Below the pieces are notes generated by a model. It did no database searches. It was not told the origin of the DNA and saw only the letters and a list, made by a program, of their open reading frames with translations. A program made the position numbers and the translations under genes. From Planctomycetia bacterium (GTDB taxonomy: Bacteria > Planctomycetota > Planctomycetia > Gemmatales > Gemmataceae): 53,635 bases of DNA. The stretch spans positions 1 through 53,635 of the forward strand of contig SYHD01000288.1 of assembly GCA_005799265.1 (NCBI GenBank), in the 5' to 3' direction. Shown here in pieces: positions 7,803 through 53,198 of this stretch. Positions within the stretch are counted from its first letter, which is position 1; the number at the start of each line of letters is the position of its first letter.

Positions 7803-7902
7803 CACGCCAGCGCCTTTTCGATCACCCTGCGATGCTCCACCCCCGTCAGCCGCTGGTCCAATCCCTGAATAGAAGATGTTGAGCCGTTCGTAATCGAGGC
7901 CC
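7803..7902 (-). pseudogene. DUF1501 3'-end fragment
   Basis: About 100 bp that align to the last 100 bp of the intact DUF1501 gene (8591-8690) in the same orientation, at roughly 85% identity by eye. Reversed, it still encodes most of the C-terminal GLDQRLTGVEH-type segment. One extra base in the CTGAATAGAAG stretch near 7868 shifts the frame relative to the intact copy. It has no upstream coding sequence: similarity stops where the Uma2 gene begins. Confidence 0.85.
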
Positions 7903-8589: not shown

Positions 8590-9996
8590 CTACGCCAGCG
8601 CCTTTTCGATCACATGCCGGTGTTCGACGCCCGTCAGCCGTTGATCCAATCCCTGATAGAAGAAGCTGAGCCGTTCGTGGTCGAGGCCCATCAAGTGCAG
8701 GACGGTCGCGTGCAGGTCGCTGATGTGGTGGCGATCCTCGACGGCGTTGAAGCCGAGCTCGTCGGTCGCGCCGATCGTCTGCCCGCCTTTGACGCCGGCG
8801 CCGGCGAGCCACATCGAGAAGCCGAACGGGTTGTGATCGCGGCCCGGTCGTCCGACGCCCTCGCTCGTCGGCGTGCGGCCGAACTCCCCGCCCCAGATCA
8901 AGAGCGTCTCGTCCCACAGGCCCGTGCGTTTCAGATCGTTGATGAGGGCGGCGATCGGTTGATCGGTCTCGCCGGCGTGAAGCGCATGGTTGCGAATGCA
9001 ATCGCTGTGCCCGTCCCAGGTGTCCTCCAGATGACCGCCGCCGGAGTAGAGCTGCACGAAACGCACGCCTGATTCCAACAGGCGGCGCGTGATCAAGCAC
9101 TTGCGGCCAAAGTCGGCGGTGAGCGGATTGTCGAGGCCGTACATCGTGCGTGTCTGGGCGCTCTCGCGGTTGACATCGACGACCTCGGTTGCGCGCGTCT
9201 GCATGCGGTAGGCGAGCTCGTACGATTCGATACGCGCGGCCAATTCGGAGTCGCCTGGCCGCGTCTTGAGATGCTCTTGATTCAAGCGCTGCAAGAGATC
9301 GAGCGACTCGCGCTGCGTTTGCGGGCTGACGCCGGGCGGCGTGGCGAGATCGAGCAGCGGCGTGCCGGTGCTGCGGAAGAGCGTGCCCTGGTGCGAGGCC
9401 GGCATGAAGCCCGCGGTCCAGTTCGACGCGCTGCCGATTGGCCCGCCGCGCGGATCGGTCATGACGACATAGCTCGGCAAGCTGTCGTTGAGTGAGCCGA
9501 GGCCATAGCTCAGCCAGGCGCCGAGGGACGGCCGACCGATCTGCACGCTGCCGGTGTTCATCTGAATGCACCCGGACGCATGCGCTGCCGTGTCGGTGTA
9601 GAGCGAGCGGATGACGCACAGATCGTCGGCATAGCGCGCCGTGTGCGGGAAGAGGGCGCTGATCTCGAGCCCCGACTGCCCATACTTGCGAAACGTGAAC
9701 GGCGTCTGCATGAGATTGCCGATGGGCCGGCCATTGGAGCCAACGGGCGTCTCGCCGCGATAGGGTTGGTTGTGATGGCGCGTCAGAGCCGGTTTGTGAT
9801 CGAACGTATCGACCTGGCTCGGCGCCCCGTTCATGAACAGGAAGACGCAATGCTTGGCCCTGGAAAGCCCAGGGACGGCCGTCCCTGGGCTTTGCGCGAA
9901 GAACCCGTCGCGCGAAAGCAGATCGATCAGCGCGAGGCCCGCGAAGCCGGCGCCGGCGCGGGTGAAGAAGGAGCGGCGGGAACAAGGGATTGCCAT
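8590..9996 (-). CDS. DUF1501 domain-containing secreted protein
   Basis: 468 aa DUF1501 protein with a Tat-like leader (CSRRSFFTRAGAGFAGLALIDLL). Landmarks are FMNGAPSQVDTFDHKP, the GGEFGRTPTSEG and GRDHNPFGFSMWLAG blocks, and a C-terminal LGFNAVEDRHHISDLHATVLHLMGLDHERLS pattern typical of the subgroup that includes the 29859 copy. A perfect 30-bp palindrome at 9864-9893 is read in frame just after the leader and adds the peptide SPGTAVPGLSRA. Fragments of related genes lie on both sides (3' piece at 7803-7902, 5' piece at 12824-12929). The exact reaction of DUF1501 proteins is unknown. Confidence 0.92.
   Translation of the reverse strand: MAIPCSRRSFFTRAGAGFAGLALIDLLSRDGFFAQSPGTAVPGLSRAKHCVFLFMNGAPSQVDTFDHKPALTRHHNQPYRGETPVGSNGRPIGNLMQTPFTFRKYGQSGLEISALFPHTARYADDLCVIRSLYTDTAAHASGCIQMNTGSVQIGRPSLGAWLSYGLGSLNDSLPSYVVMTDPRGGPIGSASNWTAGFMPASHQGTLFRSTGTPLLDLATPPGVSPQTQRESLDLLQRLNQEHLKTRPGDSELAARIESYELAYRMQTRATEVVDVNRESAQTRTMYGLDNPLTADFGRKCLITRRLLESGVRFVQLYSGGGHLEDTWDGHSDCIRNHALHAGETDQPIAALINDLKRTGLWDETLLIWGGEFGRTPTSEGVGRPGRDHNPFGFSMWLAGAGVKGGQTIGATDELGFNAVEDRHHISDLHATVLHLMGLDHERLSFFYQGLDQRLTGVEHRHVIEKALA
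9864..9893. repeat. 30-bp perfect palindrome inside the DUF1501 coding sequence
   Basis: The half-site AAAGCCCAGGGACGG is followed immediately by its exact reverse complement. It is in frame in the DUF1501 gene at 8590-9996, at the junction between the export signal and the folded domain. Similarity to the DUF1501 5' fragment at 12824 begins at the base immediately after this palindrome (9894). Confidence 0.95.
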
Positions 9997-10603
9997 CGGT
10001 TCTCCTTTTCCTTCGATCAGGCCTCGAATTTGACCTCAAGCTATTTGGGGTGCGGTATGTTAATTCTACTGCAACATCAAAAATGGTTCCAGTTCGCCAC
10101 AGACGGTCTGGACATTGCCGGCTGAGAATGCCCAACTCCGTCTCGGCCATGTTGCGCACAAGTAATACAACAACTTGGTGTACATGGCTTAGCGGTTGTG
10201 TAGCCGTTCACCTCCCCTCTCCCTCTGTACTCAGGGGGAGAGGGGTCGGGGGTGAGGGGGAGGAACAGACAGTTGCGCGACGCCTCAACCCCTCACCCCC
10301 AGCCCCTCTCCCCTGAGTACAGGGGAGAGGGGTGAACGGTTACGCGGTTGTTTTTGGGTAACTCCAAGAGTTCAAACCACGTGCACGTTGTTCAAGTCTC
10401 CGCTCCGCTCGATTCGGATGAATCGTCAATTGCGTGCGTGGGTTTCGACTGTCCACGCTGATCCCCACGAGAACAGGAGGCGCTTACTTTCGCGTTTTCT
10501 CTGTATTCCCCGTACTCCGAGTGGTCTCAATTTTTGGTAGGAGTCGGCGCGAGGTGTCCAGGTTCCGCTCTTTTCTTTTCTTGATTCAATCGGAGTTCAC
10601 GCC
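9997..10603. other. 607-bp intergenic region without a supported gene
   Basis: Upstream of both the minus-strand DUF1501 gene and the plus-strand C92 gene, so it should contain divergent promoters. It holds the REPIN-like element at 10206-10337. I see no convincing coding sequence: short open frames here have no domain content or ribosome binding sites. A CGGAG stretch 8 bases before 10604 can serve as the ribosome binding site of the C92 gene. I could not pick a convincing -10/-35 pair. Confidence 0.6.
10206..10337. repeat. REPIN-like element, copy A (132 bp)
   Basis: Two REP-like arms of about 50 bp face each other around a roughly 30-bp unique centre containing AACAGACAGTTGCG. Each arm contains its own small palindrome centred on TGTACTCAGGGG / CCCCTGAGTACA. 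The element is repeated at 49840-49971 in the opposite orientation with only 5 differences in 132 bp by manual alignment. It has no coding capacity of its own. Confidence 0.92.
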
Positions 10604-12760: not shown

Positions 12761-12779
12761 GGGAAGAAAAGAAGTAACC

Positions 12780-12823
12780 GTTCGCCCTTCTCCTCTGTAC
12801 TCGGGGGAGAGGGGATGAGGGGT
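12780..12823. repeat. Solo REP (single arm of the REPIN family)
   Basis: About 44 bp resembling one arm of the 132-bp elements: a CTCTGTACTCGGGGGAGAGG core followed by a GATGAGGGGTG tail. It is more degenerate than the REPIN arms. It abuts the DUF1501 5' fragment with no gap: the homology to the intact DUF1501 gene starts at 12824. Confidence 0.82.
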
Positions 12824-12929
12824 GCGCGAAGAAGCCATCGCGCGAGAGCAGGTCGATCGGCGCGAGGCCCGCGAAGCCGGCGCCGGCGCGGGCGAAGAAG
12901 GAGCGGCGGGATAGCGATGGAATCCACAT
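12824..12929 (-). pseudogene. DUF1501 5'-end fragment (leader peptide only)
   Basis: Positions 12824-12911 match 9894-9981 of the intact DUF1501 gene with 6 differences in 88 bp. A start codon at 12929 still opens a frame encoding SRRSFFARAGAGFAGLAPID and the following LLSRDGFFA, i.e. the Tat-like leader. It then runs straight into the solo REP at 12780-12823, so only about 36 family residues remain. This is a relic of a sixth DUF1501 gene. Confidence 0.87.
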
Positions 12930-24586: not shown

Positions 24587-27217
24587 ATGATGCCAACAAC
24601 CCGCAACCTCATGCTTGCCGCCTTTTTCCTCACGAGCGCTGTTACCAGCGTGCGCGCCGACGATATCCAGTACAACCGCGACATCCGCCCAATTCTGACG
24701 GACGCCTGCTTCAAGTGCCATGGCCCCGCGGCGAAGAAAGGTGGTTTCCGTCTCGATGTCCGCGAGGAGGCGACCCGGCCCGCCAAGAGCAAGGCGACGC
24801 CGATCATCCCCGGTAAGCCCGGCGAGAGCGAGCTGATCAAACGCATCTTCAGCAAGGACGCCGACGAGATGATGCCGCCTCCGACTGCGCACCGGACGCT
24901 CAAGCCGGAGCAAAAGGAGTTGCTCAAGAAGTGGATCGCGGACGGCGCCACCTATCAGAAGCACTGGTCGTTTGAGCCGCCGGCTAAAGTCGCGCTGCCG
25001 AATGTTGACGCGAAGAATCCGATCGATCGCTTCATCCTCGAACGGCTCAAGCGTGAAGGCTTGACGCTGTCGCCGGAAGCGGATCGGCCTACCTTGATCC
25101 GCCGTGTCGCCTTCGCGTTGACGGGGTTGCCGCCGACCGTGAGCGAGATCGATGCATTCCGCGCCGACAAAGCGCCCGACGCCTATGAGAAGATGGTCGA
25201 TAGCTATCTCGCGTCGCCGCGCTACGGCGAAGAGATGGCGCGTCATTGGCTGGATTTCGCGCGCTATGCCGACACGCACGGGTTGCACCTCGACAACGAA
25301 CGTACGATGTGGCTCTATCGCGACTGGGTCGTGCGCGCCTTCAACGATAACATGCCGTTCGACCGCTTCACCATCGAGCAACTCGCCGGCGATCTGTTGC
25401 CGAAGGCGTCCAGCGAACAGATTGTCGCGACCGGCTTCAATCGCTGCAACGTCTCCACGAGCGAAGGGGGTTCGATCGACTCCGAATGGGTCTTCCGCAA
25501 CGCCGTCGATCGCGCTTCGACGACGATGGAAGTTTTCCTGGCGCTGACCGGCGGCTGCGCGGTTTGTCACGATCACAAGTTCGATCCGATCACGGCGAAG
25601 GACTTCTATTCGATGTATGCGTTCTTTTACTCGATCGACGGCCCCGCGATGGACGGCAACGCGCTTTTGACCGCGCCGACATTCAAGACGCTGACGCAAG
25701 CCCAGGAGAAAAAGCTCGCGGCTCTGAACGGTCAAATTGCGAAGGTGCAAGGCGATCTCGGCCAGAAAACACAGACGGTCAAATACACCGACCCCGCCGA
25801 CCTGCCGCCGGAAGCGACCAAGTTCGCGAAAGATCCGGCCCGCTCGTTCAAGGCCTGGCGCGTCAAGGTCGCCAAGGACAACAAGGGGTTGCCGAAAGAG
25901 GTCGTCGCTCTCATCAAACAGCCAAAGCTCGATCAAGCCGGCGAGACGAAACTGCGCGACTATTTCTTGCAAAACGCCTGTGCCGAGACGAAACCGATCT
26001 TCGATGCCTTGACGAAGCAACTCGCGACATTGACGAAGGAACGCGACGGGTTGAACACGGCGATTCCAGGCACGTTTATCTTCAAAGACATGGCCAAGCC
26101 GCGCGACAGTTTCGTGATGATGCGCGGGCAGTACACGAAGCCGGGCGAGAAAGTCGATCCCAATACGCCGAGCTTCCTGCCGCCGCTGACCAAGAGCGGA
26201 GCACGAGCGACTCGGCTCGATCTGGCGAAGTGGCTGACCGCGCCGGAGCACCCGATGACGGCGCGCGTGGCCGTCAATCGCTACTGGCAGCAATTCTTCG
26301 GCACGGGCCTGGTCAAATCGAGCGGCGATTTCGGCGCCCAGGGAGATTTACCTAGCCATCCCGAATTGCTTGACTGGTTGGCACTGGAGTTCATTTCTCC
26401 AACCAGCCCCACGCGCAAGCGTGGGGATAGCTCCGACCCCACGCTTGCGCGTGGGGCTGGTTGGGACGTGAATGCGCTCGTCCGCCTGATGCTCACGTCG
26501 CAAACCTTCCGCCAATCGGCAAGACTCACGCCGGACGTGTATAAGCGCGATCCCGAGAATCGCCTCTACGCGCGTGGCCCGCGTTTCCGCCTCGACGCCG
26601 AGCAGATTCGCGACAACGTCCTGTTCGTCAGCGGGCTGATCAACCTCGACATGGGCGGCCGCGGCGTGCGTCCATATCAACCGCCGCGCGTCTGGGAGCC
26701 GGTGGCGTTCTCCGGTTCCAACACGGGGAATTATGTGCAAGACAAGGGCGTCGGGCTTTATCGCCGCAGTGTGTACACGTTTCTCAAACGGACCGCGCCG
26801 CATCCGTTCATGGCGAACTTCGACGCCCCCAATCGCGAGTCGTCATGCAGCCGGCGCGAACGCAGCAACACGCCGTTGCAAGCGTTGCAGCTCATGAACG
26901 ACGTGCAGCACTTCGAGGCCGCCCGCAAGCTCGCCGAACGCATGATGGCGAACGGTGGCAATACGCCGGCGGAACGCATCGGCTACGGCTATCGTGTCGT
27001 CCTGTCGCGCGCGCCGGACGCCGTCGAGAGTGAGATTGTCGCCAAGGCATTCGAGCAATTCTTGACGCGCTATCAAAAAGACCCGGCCTCTGCCGCCACG
27101 GCGCTGCGCGTCGGCGAATCGCCCATTCGCGCGGGCCTGGCGGAGCCGGAACTGGCGGCGTACACCTTGGTCGCGAATCTGTTGTTGAATCTGGATGAGA
27201 CGGTGACGCGGAATTAA
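24587..27217 (+). CDS. PSCyt1-DUF1549-DUF1553 (cytochrome-PSD1) secreted protein
   Basis: 876 aa, secreted (Sec signal, residues 1-24). A PSCyt1 cytochrome-type domain opens with IQYNRDIRPILTDACFKCHG, with a CxxCH haem motif (C41, C44, H45). DUF1549 follows (NPIDRFILERLKREGL, LTGLPPTVSEID, YGEEMARHWLDFARYADTHG) and includes a second CAVCH motif at C324. DUF1553 follows (LAKWLTAPEHPMTARVAVNRYWQQFFG), ending SRAPDAVESEIV and a C-terminal helix. Two haem-type motifs suggest electron transfer in the periplasm, but the reaction is unknown. A 66-bp palindromic element is read in frame at 26399-26464. No DUF1501 gene is directly adjacent, unlike the usual paired arrangement. Confidence 0.92.
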   Translation: MMPTTRNLMLAAFFLTSAVTSVRADDIQYNRDIRPILTDACFKCHGPAAKKGGFRLDVREEATRPAKSKATPIIPGKPGESELIKRIFSKDADEMMPPPTAHRTLKPEQKELLKKWIADGATYQKHWSFEPPAKVALPNVDAKNPIDRFILERLKREGLTLSPEADRPTLIRRVAFALTGLPPTVSEIDAFRADKAPDAYEKMVDSYLASPRYGEEMARHWLDFARYADTHGLHLDNERTMWLYRDWVVRAFNDNMPFDRFTIEQLAGDLLPKASSEQIVATGFNRCNVSTSEGGSIDSEWVFRNAVDRASTTMEVFLALTGGCAVCHDHKFDPITAKDFYSMYAFFYSIDGPAMDGNALLTAPTFKTLTQAQEKKLAALNGQIAKVQGDLGQKTQTVKYTDPADLPPEATKFAKDPARSFKAWRVKVAKDNKGLPKEVVALIKQPKLDQAGETKLRDYFLQNACAETKPIFDALTKQLATLTKERDGLNTAIPGTFIFKDMAKPRDSFVMMRGQYTKPGEKVDPNTPSFLPPLTKSGARATRLDLAKWLTAPEHPMTARVAVNRYWQQFFGTGLVKSSGDFGAQGDLPSHPELLDWLALEFISPTSPTRKRGDSSDPTLARGAGWDVNALVRLMLTSQTFRQSARLTPDVYKRDPENRLYARGPRFRLDAEQIRDNVLFVSGLINLDMGGRGVRPYQPPRVWEPVAFSGSNTGNYVQDKGVGLYRRSVYTFLKRTAPHPFMANFDAPNRESSCSRRERSNTPLQALQLMNDVQHFEAARKLAERMMANGGNTPAERIGYGYRVVLSRAPDAVESEIVAKAFEQFLTRYQKDPASAATALRVGESPIRAGLAEPELAAYTLVANLLLNLDETVTRN
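26399..26464. repeat. TSPTRKRG-type inverted repeat (28-bp perfect arms) inside PSD1
   Basis: The left arm (26399-26426) and right arm (26437-26464) are exact reverse complements, with a 10-base centre. It is read in frame as TSPTRKRGDSSDPTLARGAG. It lies at the same relative position as the shorter repeat in the other PSD1 gene (15380-15416). Confidence 0.95.
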
Positions 27218-40426: not shown

Positions 40427-40484
40427 CGTTTAGCGCTTGCGGAAAACGAGGAGCGGCTTGGCGCTTCTCAGCGAGCGCTAAACG
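40427..40484. repeat. CGTTTAGCG-family inverted repeat, copy 1
   Basis: Arms CGTTTAGCGCT and AGCGCTAAACG (11 bp, perfect) lie around a 36-base centre that contains GGAGCGGCTTGGCGCTTC, followed by GGCAA. It lies just after the propeller gene, with the cyclase-like gene on the other side. It is the same family as the element at 41514-41571. Confidence 0.85.
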
Positions 40485-40492
40485 GCAACCGA

Positions 40493-41491: not shown

Positions 41492-41513
41492 GATTGGGGT
41501 CCATGCGCTTGTC

Positions 41514-41571
41514 GTTTAGCGTTCGCGTGAAAGCGCAGGGAAATTGGCGCTTCCACGCGAACGCTAAACGG
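41514..41571. repeat. CGTTTAGCG-family inverted repeat, copy 2
   Basis: Perfect 17-bp arms (CGTTTAGCGTTCGCGTG and its reverse complement) with a 24-base centre; with one mismatch the arms extend outward into CGCTTG/CAAGCGG. It lies between the cyclase-like gene and the DUF1501 gene, both on the minus strand. It may limit transcription between them, but no T-run is present. Confidence 0.9.
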
Positions 41572-41579
41572 CAAGCGGA

Positions 41580-42890
41580 TTAGATCACTTCCTCGATCGC
41601 CCGCGCATCCTCGATCATGTACACGGGTCGGCCGCTCGGATGCGTGAATTGAACGCGCGGATCCAGCCCGAGCACATGGAAGCATGTCGCGAAAAGCTCG
41701 TCGGGCGAAATCGGGCGCGAACGCACATAGGCGCCGCGCGTATCGGTATCGCCGACCACTCGGCCCATGCGCAGACCGCCGCCGATCAGCAGCGCGTCGT
41801 TGACCGGAGCCCAATGATCTCGCCCGGGGCCGCCGTTGATTCTGGGCGTGCGGCCGAATTCGCCGGTGACGATCAGCAGAATGTCGTTCTCGAGGCCGCG
41901 CGAACGGACGTCGTCGAGGAAGATGGACACCGCGTGATCGAGCGGGGGGCACAGGCTATTGCAGCCAGGGATGATGCCGCCGTGGAAGTCCCAATAGCCG
42001 TTGTTGAGCGTAACGAAACCGGCGCCTGCTTCGCACAGCCGGCGCGCGAACAAGAGCTCCTGGCCCAGCCCCGAGCCGTAGCGATCGCGCACCGAGGCCG
42101 GCTCGCGGGCAAGATCGAACGCTTCGCGGGCTCGGCCGAGCAGCACGTCCACCGCTTGCTGCTGGAAGCCGTCCATCGCGGTTGCGGTTCCGTTGACGTC
42201 GAGCGCGCGGTTGAAGGTGTCGAACTGCTGCAAGAGCGCACGGCGATCGTTGAGCTCTTCGCGGCTGACGCGCAGGCTCATGTTTGACAGCATCGGATTT
42301 TCGCGCGACTGCCCGACGCGGAACGGCGAATACGCCCGGCCCAGCCAGACCGCGTCATCGCCCGGATAGCCGCCGTGATTGGAGAGGACGCGCACGAAGG
42401 TCGGCACGCCGGTGTTCGCATTGACGGCGCCGCGGACGCGCGCCACCATCGAACCAACCGACGGATGCTGCTGCGGGATGATCGGCGCCTTGCCGAGAAA
42501 CTCCGGCGGCCAGGCCCGGCCGGTCTTCATCCAGTGCGTTGCGCCGCCGTGATCGCCGTCCTCGTGCGTGATGGTGCGCAGGATCGACATGCGGTCGGCC
42601 TGCTCGGCGAGGCGCGGGAAATGGCTGCCGAAGCGGACGCCGGAGAGCCGTGTCGGGATGGTCCCGAAGATGCTGCGATATTCAGCGGGCGCGTCTGGCT
42701 TGGGATCAAACGTTTCGTGTTGCGGCGCGCCGCCGTCGAGGAAGAGCAAGATGATCGACGTGTTGCGCGGCGTCCGTCCCGCGTCGGCAGCGGCGGCTCG
42801 CGCTTGCAAGAGTTGCGCGAGTGTCAAGCCGCCGACGCCCAAGGCGCCGACTTGAATAAATTGCCTACGATGGATCTTGGTCGATCGCAT
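41580..42890 (-). CDS. DUF1501 domain-containing secreted protein
   Basis: 436 aa. The leader MRSTKIHRRQFIQVGALGVG carries a Tat-like signal (HRRQF). Landmarks: FLDGGAPQHETFDPKPDAPAEYRS, THEDGDHGGATHWMKTGR, RDRYGSGLGQELLFARRLCEAG, TGEFGRTPRINGGPGRDHW and a DPRVQFTHPSGRPVYMIEDARAIEEV ending. The start at 42890 is chosen because the leader begins there; the frame stays open for 73 more codons without family features. Closest in layout to the 3339 copy (both have GRTPR(V/I)NGGxGRDHW). The repeat at 41514-41571 lies just after its stop codon. Confidence 0.91.
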   Translation of the reverse strand: MRSTKIHRRQFIQVGALGVGGLTLAQLLQARAAAADAGRTPRNTSIILLFLDGGAPQHETFDPKPDAPAEYRSIFGTIPTRLSGVRFGSHFPRLAEQADRMSILRTITHEDGDHGGATHWMKTGRAWPPEFLGKAPIIPQQHPSVGSMVARVRGAVNANTGVPTFVRVLSNHGGYPGDDAVWLGRAYSPFRVGQSRENPMLSNMSLRVSREELNDRRALLQQFDTFNRALDVNGTATAMDGFQQQAVDVLLGRAREAFDLAREPASVRDRYGSGLGQELLFARRLCEAGAGFVTLNNGYWDFHGGIIPGCNSLCPPLDHAVSIFLDDVRSRGLENDILLIVTGEFGRTPRINGGPGRDHWAPVNDALLIGGGLRMGRVVGDTDTRGAYVRSRPISPDELFATCFHVLGLDPRVQFTHPSGRPVYMIEDARAIEEVI

Positions 42891-49734: not shown

Positions 49735-49839
49735 GGGCTCACTCCTCTTGAAGCAGACGTGGATCGATGGTGAGAGTGTAACGGACAGCATTGCGTAGTG
49801 CAAGCGCGACGGTCGTCCTACGGTGTCGCCAGCTTAACT

Positions 49840-49971
49840 GTTCACCCCTCTCCCCTGTACTCAGGGGAGAGGGGCTGGGGGTGAGGGGTTGAGCCGTCAC
49901 GCAACTGTCTGTTCCTCCCCCTCACCCCCGGCCCCTCTCCCCCTGAGTACAGGGGGAGAGGGGAGGAGAAC
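49840..49971. repeat. REPIN-like element, copy B (132 bp)
   Basis: Reverse-complement copy of the element at 10206-10337 with 127 of 132 bases equal (manual alignment). It overlaps the 3' end of the FAD/Fe-S oxidase gene, whose last residues (SSPPLSPCTQGERGRG) and stop codon it provides. The two copies are 39.6 kb apart in opposite orientation. Confidence 0.93.
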
Positions 49972-52900
49972 TGTTATTCGTCAGCAGCGATTGCAAAAGC
50001 GTCGCCGGATGGACAGCCTTGCGTCCCGTGAAGTGCTCGATCTGCATGCGGCATGAGAAGCCGGGCGCGACGATCACGGTGTCGGCGTCGGCCTGCCGGA
50101 TCAATGGGAAGAGCCGTTGTTCGCCGACCATACGTGAAATATCGTAGTGTTCGATTTCATAGCCGAACGAGCCCGCCATGCCGCAGCAGCCGGCGTCGAC
50201 GTCGATGACTTCCGCGCCGGGGATGCGTTTGAGCAAATCGATCGTCGCTCCCATGCCGACGAGGGAACGCTGATGGCAATGCCCCTGCACGAGGATGCGC
50301 TTCGGACCGGGCCGGAAGGTCAAGCGCTCGTTAGCCGGACGCGCCAGCGACGAGCCCGACCGTCCGTCGCTTGCGCGTCCGGCTAACTGCTGTTCGAGGA
50401 ATTCCTCGAACGTAAAGCAGCGTGCGGCAACTGCCTTCGCCTTCTCGCGCAGCTCGCCGCGCAGCAGGGCCGGGTAGTCGTCTTTCATCGTCAAAATGCA
50501 ACTCGGCTCGCAGGCGATGATCGGCAGGCCCTGCGCCGCCCACGGGAAAAGCCGTTCGACGTTGTGCGTGGCGTTGGCGACCGCCTGATCGAGCATGCCA
50601 TTGGAGATCATCGGCCGACCGCAGCAGCGCAGGTTGTCGGGCCATACGTGTCCGGCCGGCGTCGCGCGTCTGGTCGAATGCGGCAAACCGGCGATGACGA
50701 GGTTCTTCAAACCGAGCATGAGCACCAGCGTTGCGACGCCGAGTTCCGGTTCATGGTAGTTCATGAAGGTATCGGGAAACAGCAGCACCTCCGGCAGCGA
50801 CGCGGCGGGCGAGGTCGCATAGAGCGGCCCGCTTGTGAACGGCAAGGCGGCGAACGCCGGCGGCGTGCGTCCGCGTTCGATGCCGAGCGTCTTCTCGTTC
50901 AGCCATCGACCTGCGCCACTGCGCGCCCACCAGTTGGACCACGGCGTCAATCGGCAGCCCCACTTGCTCAGGGTTGCCACATTGCCGAACAGCCAGTTTC
51001 GCCAGGGCAGGCCGTGTTTCTTGTGATGCTGATCGAGCACCTCCGCTTTCAAGCGAGCCATGTCGACGTTCGTCGGGCATTCGCTCTTGCACGCTTTGCA
51101 CTCCAGGCACAGGTCGAGCGCTGCGAGGACGGCGGGGTCGGTTAATCCCTCACCCCCAGCCCCTCTCCCAGAAGGAGAGGGGAGCAAATCAAGTTGGCCG
51201 GTCAATGCCAGCCGCAGCGTGTTGGCCCGGCCGCGCGTCGAGTGCAGTTCGTCGCACGTCGCCTGGTACGACGGACACATCGTCCCGCCGCGCTTTTTAC
51301 GGCACTCGCCGACACCGGCGCATAATTCGGTCGCGCGCGTCAGGCCGCCCTCGCTCGAGAAGTCGAACGTCGTCGGCACGTCGGGCGTCTGATACGCGGG
51401 GCCGTAACGCAGACTCGACGCGAGCGGAGGCGCGTCCACGATCTTGCCGGGATTGAGCAGGTATTGCGGATCGAAAGTGTGTTTGATCTCGCGAAAGGCT
51501 TGATAGAGCGTCGGCCCGTACATCTTCTCTTGATAAGGACTGCGCACCAGCCCGTCGCCGTGCTCGCCCGACAAGGCGCCGCCGTACTTCAGCACGAGGT
51601 CCGCGACGTCGTCGGCAATCCGTTGGAAGCGCTCGACGCCCTCGACCGTTTTCAGATTGACGATCGGCCGCACATGCAGACAGCCGACCGACGCATGCGC
51701 GTAGACGCCGGCTTTGGTGCCATGGCGGGCAATGATTTGCAGGAACTCGTCGATGTAATCGCGCAGGCGCTGCGGATCGACGGCGGTGTCCTCGACAAAG
51801 GAGATCGCCTTGGCGTCGCCTTTCTCCGCCATCGACAGGCCGAGCGCGAGCGTGCGCAGCTTCCAGATGCGCGCCTGCGCGGCGGCCTCCGTGGCGCGAT
51901 GCAGATGCAGAATTCCGTCTAGCGCTCGCAGTGGACCTTCCAGGGCGTCCAGTCGCGGCAACAACTCCTGTACCGTTTCACCATAAAACTCGATGATGAG
52001 GATTGCCCCCGGATCACCGACGATGAAGTCGCGCAGTCGCGTCGCTTCCGCGTTCAGTTTCGTGCAATCGAGAATGAAGCGATCCATGACCTCGACCGCC
52101 GCCGGCTTATGCTTGAGTATAGGCGGTGTCGCCGCGAGCGCATCGAGCAAGTCGCGAAACTGGACGACAAGCAGCGCTTTCGCCTTGGGGAGTTCGACGA
52201 GGCGCAATTTCGCTTCGAGGACGATGCCGAGCGTGCCTTCGGAGCCCACGAAGAGATTCGCGAGATTAACAGGATTACTAGCCCGCAGCGCAAGCAAGGG
52301 CAGCCCTTGCTTGCGCTGCGGGCTAGTATTCGGTACGAAACAATCGAGATTATATCCGCCGACTCGGCGCAGGATCTTCGGATAGCGGCGTCCGATCTCG
52401 TCGGCATTCTCCGCCGCGAGCCGGCGCACGACGCGGTAGCCGGCGCCTTCTGGGTCTTGCTGAGTGCACTTCGCCTCCACGTCCGCATCATCCAGCGGTC
52501 GGGCGTGCATGACGCTGCCGTCGGTGAGCAGCACTTTCAGCTCCAGGACGTGATCGATGGTCTTGCCGTAGATGAGCGAGCGTGTACCGGAGGAGTTGTT
52601 CGCGACCATGCCGCCGATGGTGGCGCGATTGGCGGTCGAGATGTCCGGCGCAAATTGCAGCTTGTGCGTTTTCACCTGCTGATTGAGTTCGTCGAGCACA
52701 CAGCCCGGCTCAACGCGCACCCAGCGTTCGGCCGCGTTGATTTCGAGCACGCGATTGAGATACTTCGAGAAATCGAGGATGACCCCCGGCCCGATCGACT
52801 GCCCCGCTTGCGAGGTCCCACCGCCGCGCGCGGTGATGGGCACACCGAGCCGAGAGCAAATCTTCAGGGTTGCCAAGACATCGTCCAGCGTTTTCGGGAT

Positions 52901-53068
52901 GACGACGCCGACGGGTACGATCTGATAGACACTGGCGTCGGTGGAGTAGAGGGCGCGATCGAGTCGATCGAAGCGCACCTCGCCGGCGATGGCGCGCGTG
53001 AGTTCCGCGCGCAGGGCGACGACGTCGACCGTGGGCTTCGAGACCAGAGGCAGCGAGGCGAGAGTCAT
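49922..53068 (-). CDS. FAD-binding and Fe-S oxidase (YdiJ-type 2-hydroxyacid dehydrogenase-like)
   Basis: 1048 aa. A GlcD-type FAD domain comes first (VVIPKTLDDVLATLKICSRL, ARGGGTSQAGQSIGPGVILDFS, TIGGMVANNSSGTRSLIYGK), then the FAD-oxidase C domain (GVYAHASVGCLHVRP, SGEHGDGLVRS). A 4Fe-4S ferredoxin-like part follows (GECRKKRGGTMCPSY, LCLECKACKSECPTN), then two CCG-type blocks (CCGRPM, CCGMAGS) near the end. Relatives oxidise D-lactate or D-2-hydroxyglutarate. The gene carries palindromic repeats read in frame at 50330-50387, 51147-51184 and 52277-52327, and its 3' end lies within REPIN copy B. The start at 53068 avoids an upstream inverted repeat. Confidence 0.92.
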   Translation of the reverse strand: MTLASLPLVSKPTVDVVALRAELTRAIAGEVRFDRLDRALYSTDASVYQIVPVGVVIPKTLDDVLATLKICSRLGVPITARGGGTSQAGQSIGPGVILDFSKYLNRVLEINAAERWVRVEPGCVLDELNQQVKTHKLQFAPDISTANRATIGGMVANNSSGTRSLIYGKTIDHVLELKVLLTDGSVMHARPLDDADVEAKCTQQDPEGAGYRVVRRLAAENADEIGRRYPKILRRVGGYNLDCFVPNTSPQRKQGLPLLALRASNPVNLANLFVGSEGTLGIVLEAKLRLVELPKAKALLVVQFRDLLDALAATPPILKHKPAAVEVMDRFILDCTKLNAEATRLRDFIVGDPGAILIIEFYGETVQELLPRLDALEGPLRALDGILHLHRATEAAAQARIWKLRTLALGLSMAEKGDAKAISFVEDTAVDPQRLRDYIDEFLQIIARHGTKAGVYAHASVGCLHVRPIVNLKTVEGVERFQRIADDVADLVLKYGGALSGEHGDGLVRSPYQEKMYGPTLYQAFREIKHTFDPQYLLNPGKIVDAPPLASSLRYGPAYQTPDVPTTFDFSSEGGLTRATELCAGVGECRKKRGGTMCPSYQATCDELHSTRGRANTLRLALTGQLDLLPSPSGRGAGGEGLTDPAVLAALDLCLECKACKSECPTNVDMARLKAEVLDQHHKKHGLPWRNWLFGNVATLSKWGCRLTPWSNWWARSGAGRWLNEKTLGIERGRTPPAFAALPFTSGPLYATSPAASLPEVLLFPDTFMNYHEPELGVATLVLMLGLKNLVIAGLPHSTRRATPAGHVWPDNLRCCGRPMISNGMLDQAVANATHNVERLFPWAAQGLPIIACEPSCILTMKDDYPALLRGELREKAKAVAARCFTFEEFLEQQLAGRASDGRSGSSLARPANERLTFRPGPKRILVQGHCHQRSLVGMGATIDLLKRIPGAEVIDVDAGCCGMAGSFGYEIEHYDISRMVGEQRLFPLIRQADADTVIVAPGFSCRMQIEHFTGRKAVHPATLLQSLLTNNSSPPLSPCTQGERGRG
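50330..50387. repeat. In-frame inverted repeat in the FAD/Fe-S oxidase gene
   Basis: Arms of 23 bp (50330-50352 and 50365-50387, one mismatch) with a 12-base centre. The left arm begins GTTAGCCGGACGCGCC. Read on the minus strand as LAGRASDGRSGSSLARPAN, between the ferredoxin part and the final CCG block. Confidence 0.9.
51147..51184. repeat. REP-type variant inside the FAD/Fe-S oxidase gene
   Basis: CCCTCACCCCCAGCCCCTCT followed by CCCAGAAGGAGAGGGGAG. It shares the CCCCTCTCC...GGAGAGGGG palindrome with the REPIN arms but has AGAA at the centre instead of GTACTCA. Read in frame as LPSPSGRGAGGEG. Confidence 0.88.
52277..52327. repeat. TSPQRKQG-type inverted repeat in the FAD/Fe-S oxidase gene
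   Basis: Perfect 24-bp arms (52277-52300 and 52304-52327) with only CAG between them. The left arm begins ACTAGCCCGCAGCGCAAGC. Read on the minus strand as NTSPQRKQGLPLLALRASNP within the FAD-binding domain. It belongs to the wider TSPxRKxG family also present in the PSD1 genes. Confidence 0.95.
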
Positions 53069-53079
53069 GCAAAATCCTT

Positions 53080-53198
53080 GGCGAACGGCCGGCGTAAGCC
53101 GGCTGGTGCGTGCGTGTGCCATCGGAAGTAATCATCAGCCAGCAGCTCTTCAACCTACCAGGCGCAGCGCACCAGCCGGCTTACGCCGGCCGTTCGCC
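53080..53198. repeat. 31-bp perfect inverted repeat flanking a 57-bp spacer
   Basis: Left arm 53080-53110 (begins GGCGAACGGCCGGCGTAAGC) and right arm 53168-53198 are exact reverse complements. Each arm also contains the small palindrome CCGGCGTAAGCCGG or its near-mirror. It fills the gap between the FAD/Fe-S oxidase start and the aminotransferase stop; the right arm supplies the aminotransferase's final residues ERPA and its stop codon. Confidence 0.93.

What the first reader, a model, noticed from the sequence alone, without database searches (positions are those of the whole stretch)
10206..10337. 132-bp REPIN-like element, two near-identical inverted copies 39.6 kb apart
Seen: 10206-10337 and 49840-49971 are reverse complements with 5 differences in 132 bp. 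Each is built of two inverted ~50-bp REP-like arms around a ~30-bp centre. The centre (AACAGACAGTTGCG and neighbours) is conserved too, so the whole 132 bp behaves as one mobile unit. Known: REPINs are paired inverted REPs moved by RAYT (TnpA_REP) transposases in gamma-proteobacteria. Inference: this genome hosts a comparable non-autonomous element. No RAYT gene is in this window.
Basis: partly seen in the sequence, partly recalled or inferred. Interest (0 to 1): 0.75.

Follow-up and report, generated by a model that had tools for sequence, protein, structure and literature searches.

The report
Jumping DNA carrying paired triplex hairpins
A short non-coding piece of DNA that occurs dozens of times in this planctomycete genome is not a REPIN but a miniature transposon with the ends and the 8-base target copies of an IS66 insertion sequence, wrapped round two copies of a widespread triplex-type hairpin; related genomes carry the same hairpins between other transposon ends, which suggests one way such hairpins can spread.

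Summary
In detail: 10206-10337 and 49840-49971 are reverse complements with 5 differences in 132 bp. The REPIN reading is wrong. The true unit is 144 bp (10200-10343; 49834-49977), with terminal inverted repeats GTAACCGTTCACC...GGTGAACGGTTAC and 8-bp flanking direct repeats (GCGGTTGT twice at copy 1; 7 of 8 at copy 2). About 40 places in the genome match it; 24 long and 12 one-arm elements with both tips readable show the 8-bp duplication statistically. An IS66 transposase piece in this genome has the same tip; IS66 elements of ~1.46 kb in relatives have nearly the same tips, four with perfect 8-bp duplications. So it is an IS66-type MITE. The exact arm core was not seen within 0.9 kb of any of 20 Y1 (RAYT-type) matches in four genomes. 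The arms are an extended form of a published intrastrand triplex motif (>260 bacterial genomes, spread unexplained). In two other planctomycete MAGs the same arms lie between different ends: one kind with a clear 4-bp YTAR duplication, one with a weakly supported 3-bp duplication. The hairpin pair therefore looks like a module taken up by different transposon ends. How, and whether the MITE still moves, is not shown.

The parts
10200..10343 (+). MITE copy 1, whole element, 144 bp
   Evidence: TIR GTAGCCGTTCACC / GGTGAACGGTTAC; flanked by a perfect 8-bp repeat
10192..10199 (.). target duplication of copy 1, left: GCGGTTGT
10344..10351 (.). target duplication of copy 1, right: GCGGTTGT
10215..10258 (+). 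triplex-motif-like arm 1 (hairpin plus third G-rich strand)
   Evidence: relaxed triplex pattern; 0 hits in 200 mononucleotide shuffles
10259..10289 (+). centre between the arms, conserved in the long copies of this genome, different (by eye) in elements with other ends
10290..10331 (-). triplex-motif-like arm 2, inverted
49834..49977 (-). MITE copy 2, whole element, 144 bp (10 differences from copy 1)
49826..49833 (.). target duplication of copy 2, low side: TCGCCAGC
   Evidence: 7 of 8 identical to the other side
49978..49985 (.). target duplication of copy 2, high side: TCGTCAGC
12774..12822 (+). partial third copy: tip GTAACCGTTCGCC and one arm, other end lost
   Evidence: tip listed, sequence; right limit approximate, by eye
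51146..51181 (-). TIR-less arm of the same hairpin family, read in frame in the FAD-oxidase gene (PSPSGRGAGGEG)

Best explanation
The element is an IS66-type MITE: 13-bp terminal inverted repeats of an IS66 (single-ORF, ISBst12-like) insertion sequence enclosing an inverted pair of triplex-motif hairpins and a centre, with no gene. An IS66 transposase made elsewhere in the genome would bind the tips and insert the unit at new sites, copying 8 bp of target each time. Shown: the TIRs, the 8-bp duplications, the copy number, the tip shared with IS66 genes. Inferred: that IS66 transposase moves it in trans. The ~55-bp one-arm form keeps the tips and duplications and is probably a deletion between the arms. 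The arms are not IS66-derived as far as can be seen: beyond the tip the MITE shares nothing obvious with IS66 ends, and the same arms sit between other transposon ends in other planctomycetes. So the hairpin pair is inferred to be a pre-existing repeat that acquired IS66 tips in this lineage.
For: Tip GTAACCGTTCACC: 92 places at <=1 mismatch against 5 for the reversed control. 38 distinct paired-tip loci; 8-bp flank identity 0.78 (24 long; shuffled 0.33 +- 0.04, max 0.47) and 0.72 (12 short; shuffled 0.28 +- 0.07, max 0.50), other widths at or near background; 12 of 38 loci 8/8 and 20 of 38 at least 7/8. In this genome the exact tip lies beside an IS66 transposase C-terminus at C182 (tip 41915-41927, PF03050 match 42058-42312, contig ends 42366). 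Of 29 IS66 loci fetched from relatives, 25 carry the tip at <=2 mismatches somewhere in the locus (reversed control 1 of 29), and 4 of 12 two-ended candidates (L380, L383, L397, L399; 1459-1466 bp) have perfect 8-bp duplications; the tip is exact at both ends of L383; L383 and L399 hold an ORF of 464 and 466 aa between the tips. The gene end next to copy 2 lacks the MITE in the 3 genus relatives where it was found, of 6 searched. Exact tip+arm pattern: 27 places in the own genome, none in the other 396 of 397 class genomes. ISDge4, an ISBst12-group IS66 element, has an 8-bp repeat and GTGAC/GTAAC tips (PMC12898284, passages).
Against: Of four PF03050 matches in this MAG only the C182 piece has the tip; C67 (the best match), C356 and C22 do not at <=1 mismatch. 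A further tip (1 mismatch) at C94 precedes a piece judged IS66-like by eye only. No complete IS66 element with these tips was found in the MAG; C182 and C94 end at contig edges. Only about 13 bp is shared with the parent, so IS66 descent rests on tip plus duplication length. Base-exact empty sites were not obtained. 6 of 24 long and 6 of 12 short elements have 5 or fewer of 8 flank matches. Current movement is not tested.
Confidence: 0.88

Rival explanations
1. REPIN: two inverted REPs moved by a RAYT.
For: Inverted palindromic arms with conserved centre in about 40 places; 11 Y1_Tnp matches in the genome.
Against: TIRs and 8-bp duplications; L035, L039 and L041 have the same or nearly the same other palindrome on both sides; exact arm core in 2 of 11 own Y1 loci, at 0.93 and 1.4 kb, and in 0 of 9 Y1 loci of three other arm-rich genomes (only the exact 10-base core was looked for and some loci are short); the arms do not begin with GTAG (by reading).
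Confidence: 0.03
2. Composite: an ordinary IS66 MITE into which a separately mobile hairpin pair jumped, after which the composite amplified.
For: Arms without tips are common in this genome (about 20 of the 30 loci read, by eye; 266 pattern matches at <=2 mismatches, but the reversed control also gives 188).
Against: No IS66 sub-terminal sequence was recognised next to the arms, and the arms start within a few bases of the tip in both size classes, which would need insertion at both tip borders; the same tight fit recurs with two other kinds of ends.
Confidence: 0.12
3. A different DDE transposase with the same tip and 8-bp duplication moves it.
For: Several IS families make 8-bp duplications (recalled; no call tested this).
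Against: The tip was found at <=2 mismatches in 25 of 29 IS66 loci; but no other transposase family was searched for with this tip.
Confidence: 0.06

Closest known systems
IS66 family, ISBst12-like single-ORF elements (e.g. ISDge4, PMC12898284, passages)
   Same: GTAA-type tips, 8-bp duplication, one transposase ORF of ~450-470 aa in the two relatives' elements read
   Different: The MITE keeps only the 13-bp tips, no gene and no recognised sub-terminal IS66 sequence
Intrastrand triplex motif TM/TMECO (Holder 2015, PMC4666352; outline, abstract and passages seen)
   Same: C-rich strand, loop, G-rich strand, 3-nt loop, second G-rich strand; also as inverted pairs (five in E. coli MG1655)
   Different: Strands 11 nt instead of 9 and a longer first loop, so the strict published pattern does not match in the window; here inside transposon ends, whereas the authors found no mobility genes or mobile elements with it in E. 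coli
REPINs / RAYT REPs (PMC3116915, search listing only; PMC3733652, passages)
   Same: Inverted palindromic pairs at high copy
   Different: TIR + 8-bp duplication, no RAYT link seen, no GTAG tag
Other bacterial MITEs (review PMC10969869, passages; IS66 has no occurrence in its main text)
   Same: Short, non-coding, TIR + duplication, size variants
   Different: Interior not recognisably derived from the parent IS and shared by elements with other ends

Membership tests
MITE | short non-coding unit with terminal inverted repeats | tested here: met
   52-58 bp and 130-145 bp classes with 13-bp TIR
MITE | fixed-length target duplication | tested here: met
   8 bp, both classes
MITE | many copies, absent at orthologous sites in relatives | tested here: met
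   about 40 places; gene end without it in 3 of 3 relatives where found, one site only, not base-exact
IS66-derived | tip shared with IS66 elements | tested here: met
   25 of 29 loci of relatives, control 1 of 29; 1 of 4 PF03050 places in own genome
IS66-derived | 8-bp duplication in the parent | tested here: met
   perfect in 4 of 12 two-ended candidates
IS66-derived | sub-terminal sequence shared with the parent | tested here: not met
   similarity stops after ~13 bp (by reading)
IS66-derived | moved by the transposase in trans | not testable with these tools
   needs an assay
REPIN | no target duplication (recalled) | tested here: not met
   8-bp duplication
REPIN | RAYT gene flanked by the same repeat | tested here: not met
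   exact arm core in 2 of 20 Y1 loci, both more than 0.9 kb away
REPIN | paired inverted palindromes with conserved centre | tested here: met
Triplex motif TM | published consensus, strict | tested here: not met
   0 strict hits in the window; 4 hits when the loops are relaxed
Triplex motif TM | forms an intrastrand triplex | not testable with these tools
   reported in vitro for the E. coli version by the authors (PMC4666352)

The most novel reading that the evidence does not exclude
Inverted triplex-motif pairs are recurrent seeds of MITEs: different insertion sequences (IS66; a YTAR-targeting one; probably a TNA-targeting one) have independently provided minimal tips to the same hairpin pair, perhaps because replication template switching across the long palindrome copies a tip from one side to the other. 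This would turn a dispersed hairpin next to one IS end into a transposable unit, and would be one way in which this motif, known from >260 bacterial genomes, spreads.
Probability: 0.3. Interest if true: 0.82.

Novelty: new variant of a known kind. Interest (0 to 1): 0.6.

Why it matters
Triplex-motif repeats are known from more than 260 bacterial genomes, and the authors who described them wrote that they never found mobility activities near them in E. coli and left their spread open (PMC4666352, abstract and passages). Here the motif pair is found inside elements with transposon ends and target duplications, in one genome with IS66 ends and in two other planctomycete MAGs with other ends. That makes the spread of the motif, and the birth of MITEs from a foreign interior, directly testable by synthetic tip-arm-tip constructs. 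My literature searches (capped listings) showed no paper on an IS66 MITE, on planctomycete MITEs of this kind, or on one interior shared between MITEs with different ends; the library lacks most subscription journals.

Tried and rejected
REPIN/RAYT: rejected on duplications, TIRs and Y1 neighbourhoods. Larger duplicated block: rejected, flanks differ between copies. Base-exact empty site of copy 2: only absence at the orthologous gene end could be shown. Duplication of the GAGTCTGT-ended type: inconclusive (equal 3-bp flanks in 5 of 14 distinct pairs; on a smaller set of 10 the shuffles reach the observed value). A third type (GAGACTATCCGCAAAGCC): only 2 arm-bearing pairs, not used. G017 arm pairs: no TIR recognised. 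No autonomous IS with the CAGTACAG or GAGTCTGT ends was seen in the 30 and 30 loci read, of 41 and 55 sites. E. coli triplex-motif pairs: three MG1655 pairs read and one site compared between four strains; no TIR or duplication seen by eye. Terminator and promoter scan round copy 1: nothing found.

Full report
What was checked first. The two 132-bp stretches are reverse complements with exactly 5 differences, 39.5 kb apart, and the arm core is far above chance. The window is contig C259 of a fragmented assembly (6.47 Mb, 372 contigs, 87% complete). A relative in the same family (G022) matches in contig lengths the Planctomycetota MAG ZJ7.bin48, so the genome is taken to be a planctomycete.

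True limits. Reading 30 genome copies with flanks showed that similarity runs 6 bp further on each side to GTAACC...GGTTAC and stops there, and that in many copies the next 8 bases are repeated on the other side. The element in the window is therefore 10200-10343 (GCGGTTGT on both sides) and 49834-49977 (TCGCCAGC / TCGTCAGC). A third, partial copy begins at 12774.

Statistics of the ends. The 13-bp tip occurs 92 times at <=1 mismatch against 5 for the reversed pattern. A script paired tips in the fetched loci: 40 rows, 38 distinct loci. Copies with worn tips (for example copy 2 itself, L005, L019, L020, L022) did not pass its limits and are not in this set. Two size classes were tested, 24 elements of 130-145 bp and 12 of 52-58 bp; four rows fall outside. 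Flank identity at width 8 is 0.78 for the long class (shuffled pairing 0.33, sd 0.04, maximum 0.47) and 0.72 for the short class (0.28, sd 0.07, maximum 0.50). Widths 3-7 and 9-13 are at or near background, with small excesses at 7 and 12 (long) and 10 (short). The spread of matches is wide: 8 of 24 long and 4 of 12 short are perfect, and 6 of 24 and 6 of 12 have five or fewer.

The enzyme. PF03050 gives four IS66 matches in the genome. One, at the edge of contig C182, has the exact tip about 130 bp from the matched stretch (Pfam 4e-6); the other three have no tip at <=1 mismatch. A piece at C94 has the tip (1 mismatch) before an N-terminal part that I recognised as IS66-like by eye only. With the C182 fragment as query, 34 of 149 genomes (own included) have matches at E <= 1e-20. 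Of the 29 loci of relatives fetched, 25 carry the tip at <=2 mismatches, against 1 for the reversed control; 12 two-ended candidates were listed and 4 of them have perfect 8-bp duplications. Two of these hold an ORF of 464 and 466 aa between the tips. The literature agrees in kind: ISDge4, ISBst12 group of IS66, has one ORF, GTGAC/GTAAC tips and an 8-bp repeat, and its authors call it copy-and-paste (PMC12898284, passages).

Against REPIN. Y1 genes exist (11 matches, 9 over the cut-off). L035, L039 and L041 have the same or nearly the same palindrome on both sides, some others have a palindrome on one side, and in several none was found within the 700 bp looked at; none of those found is the arm. 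The exact arm core lies in 2 of 11 own Y1 loci (0.93 and 1.4 kb away) and 0 of 9 in three other arm-rich genomes. The palindrome near L036 resembles the window hairpin 26399-26464, and that of L041 resembles 41503-41580, by eye.

The arms. Each arm is CCCCTCTCCCC, loop, GGGGAGAGGGG, 3 bases, GGGGTGAGGGG, give or take a base. This is an extended form of the triplex motif of Holder et al. (PMC4666352; outline, abstract and passages seen). The strict published pattern does not match in the window; with relaxed loops the four arms of the two whole copies do (0 hits in 200 mononucleotide shuffles), and 28 of 30 genome copies have at least one such arm. The single strand folds far better than shuffles (z -12.8), as any long palindrome would.

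The same arms between other ends. The 144-bp query finds 24 of 59 genomes (own included), but among the listed matches only the own genome over the full length; in other genomes the matches cover the arms and mostly stop short of the tips. In BP6.bin110 the end CAGTACAGCGCTACT occurs 41 times (reversed control 0); of the 30 loci read, 29 have an arm beside it and the other a degenerate one. Among 29 paired elements of this kind in the loci of these MAGs (a few loci from records whose title was not listed), 24 have TA on both sides; the two variable positions of YTAR agree in 21 of 24 and 23 of 24, which 0 of 2000 shuffles reach. In ZJ7.bin48 the end GAGTCTGTYYCNNAAG occurs 55 times (control 0); of 30 distinct sites in the loci read, 27 have an arm motif beside them by script and the other 3 arm-like remnants by eye; equal 3-bp flanks (TGA, TAA, TTA) in 5 of 14 distinct pairs, and a shuffle test on a smaller set was not significant. 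Centres differ between these types, by eye. The exact tip+arm combination of this window was found in no other of 397 class genomes. I infer that the arms are the constant part and the ends the variable part.

One arm and two arms. One-arm elements occur with all three kinds of ends. In E. coli the pair between hrpB and mrcB is whole in MG1655, absent in two strains read, and reduced to one arm in strain 2313 (3521 of 5426 genomes have a match covering at least 80% of the query). This supports deletion between arms as the origin of the one-arm form. No TIR or duplication was seen by eye at the E. coli pairs, so the transposon explanation is not shown for E. coli.

What is inferred. That IS66 enzyme moves the MITE; that the arms were captured rather than inherited from IS66; that capture happened more than once. 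The template-switch idea for how a second tip arises has no direct evidence here.

Verdict. A real, well-supported MITE family with an unusual, shared, triplex-type interior: a new variant of a known kind. The link between a widespread orphan repeat and transposon ends is what makes it worth following.

Noticed in passing
window 49925-53122 (-), inserts at 52280-52327, 51146-51181, 50330-50380: One FAD-oxidase/Fe-S gene carries three in-frame palindromic repeats of different families (TSPQRKQGLPLLALRA, PSPSGRGAGGEG, GRASDGRSGSSLARPAN), and MITE copy 2 extends its C-terminus. In three genus relatives the third insert is absent, the second is also present in two (G006, G002), and the first linker has other residues.
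   Followed up: partly
window 26399-26464, 41503-41580 and 40458-40491, 52273-52331, 53080-53198: Other strong palindromic repeats; two of them resemble, by eye, the palindromes found beside Y1 genes L036 and L041 and are better REP candidates than the element given.
   Followed up: partly
L042-L071 (own genome): Arms without tips, single or paired with varying centres, often with the tail AGAA after the hairpin (8 of 30 loci strictly, 5 not callable); the E. coli pair in L425 has TTTTCT at the matching end.
   Followed up: no
G017 loci L148, L171, L175-L183: Eleven arm pairs, most with a right edge near GACCGG and no inverted tip: a further kind of boundary, unexplained.
   Followed up: no
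window 9893-9981 and 12823-12911; 7804-7868 and 8592-8656: Direct repeats of 93% and 85% identity around a DUF1501 gene (Pfam), looking like a partial gene duplication.
   Followed up: no
L425, L428-L430 (E. coli hrpB-mrcB): A triplex-motif pair is present, absent or reduced to one arm in different E. coli strains, a ready natural series for studying its gain and loss.
   Followed up: partly
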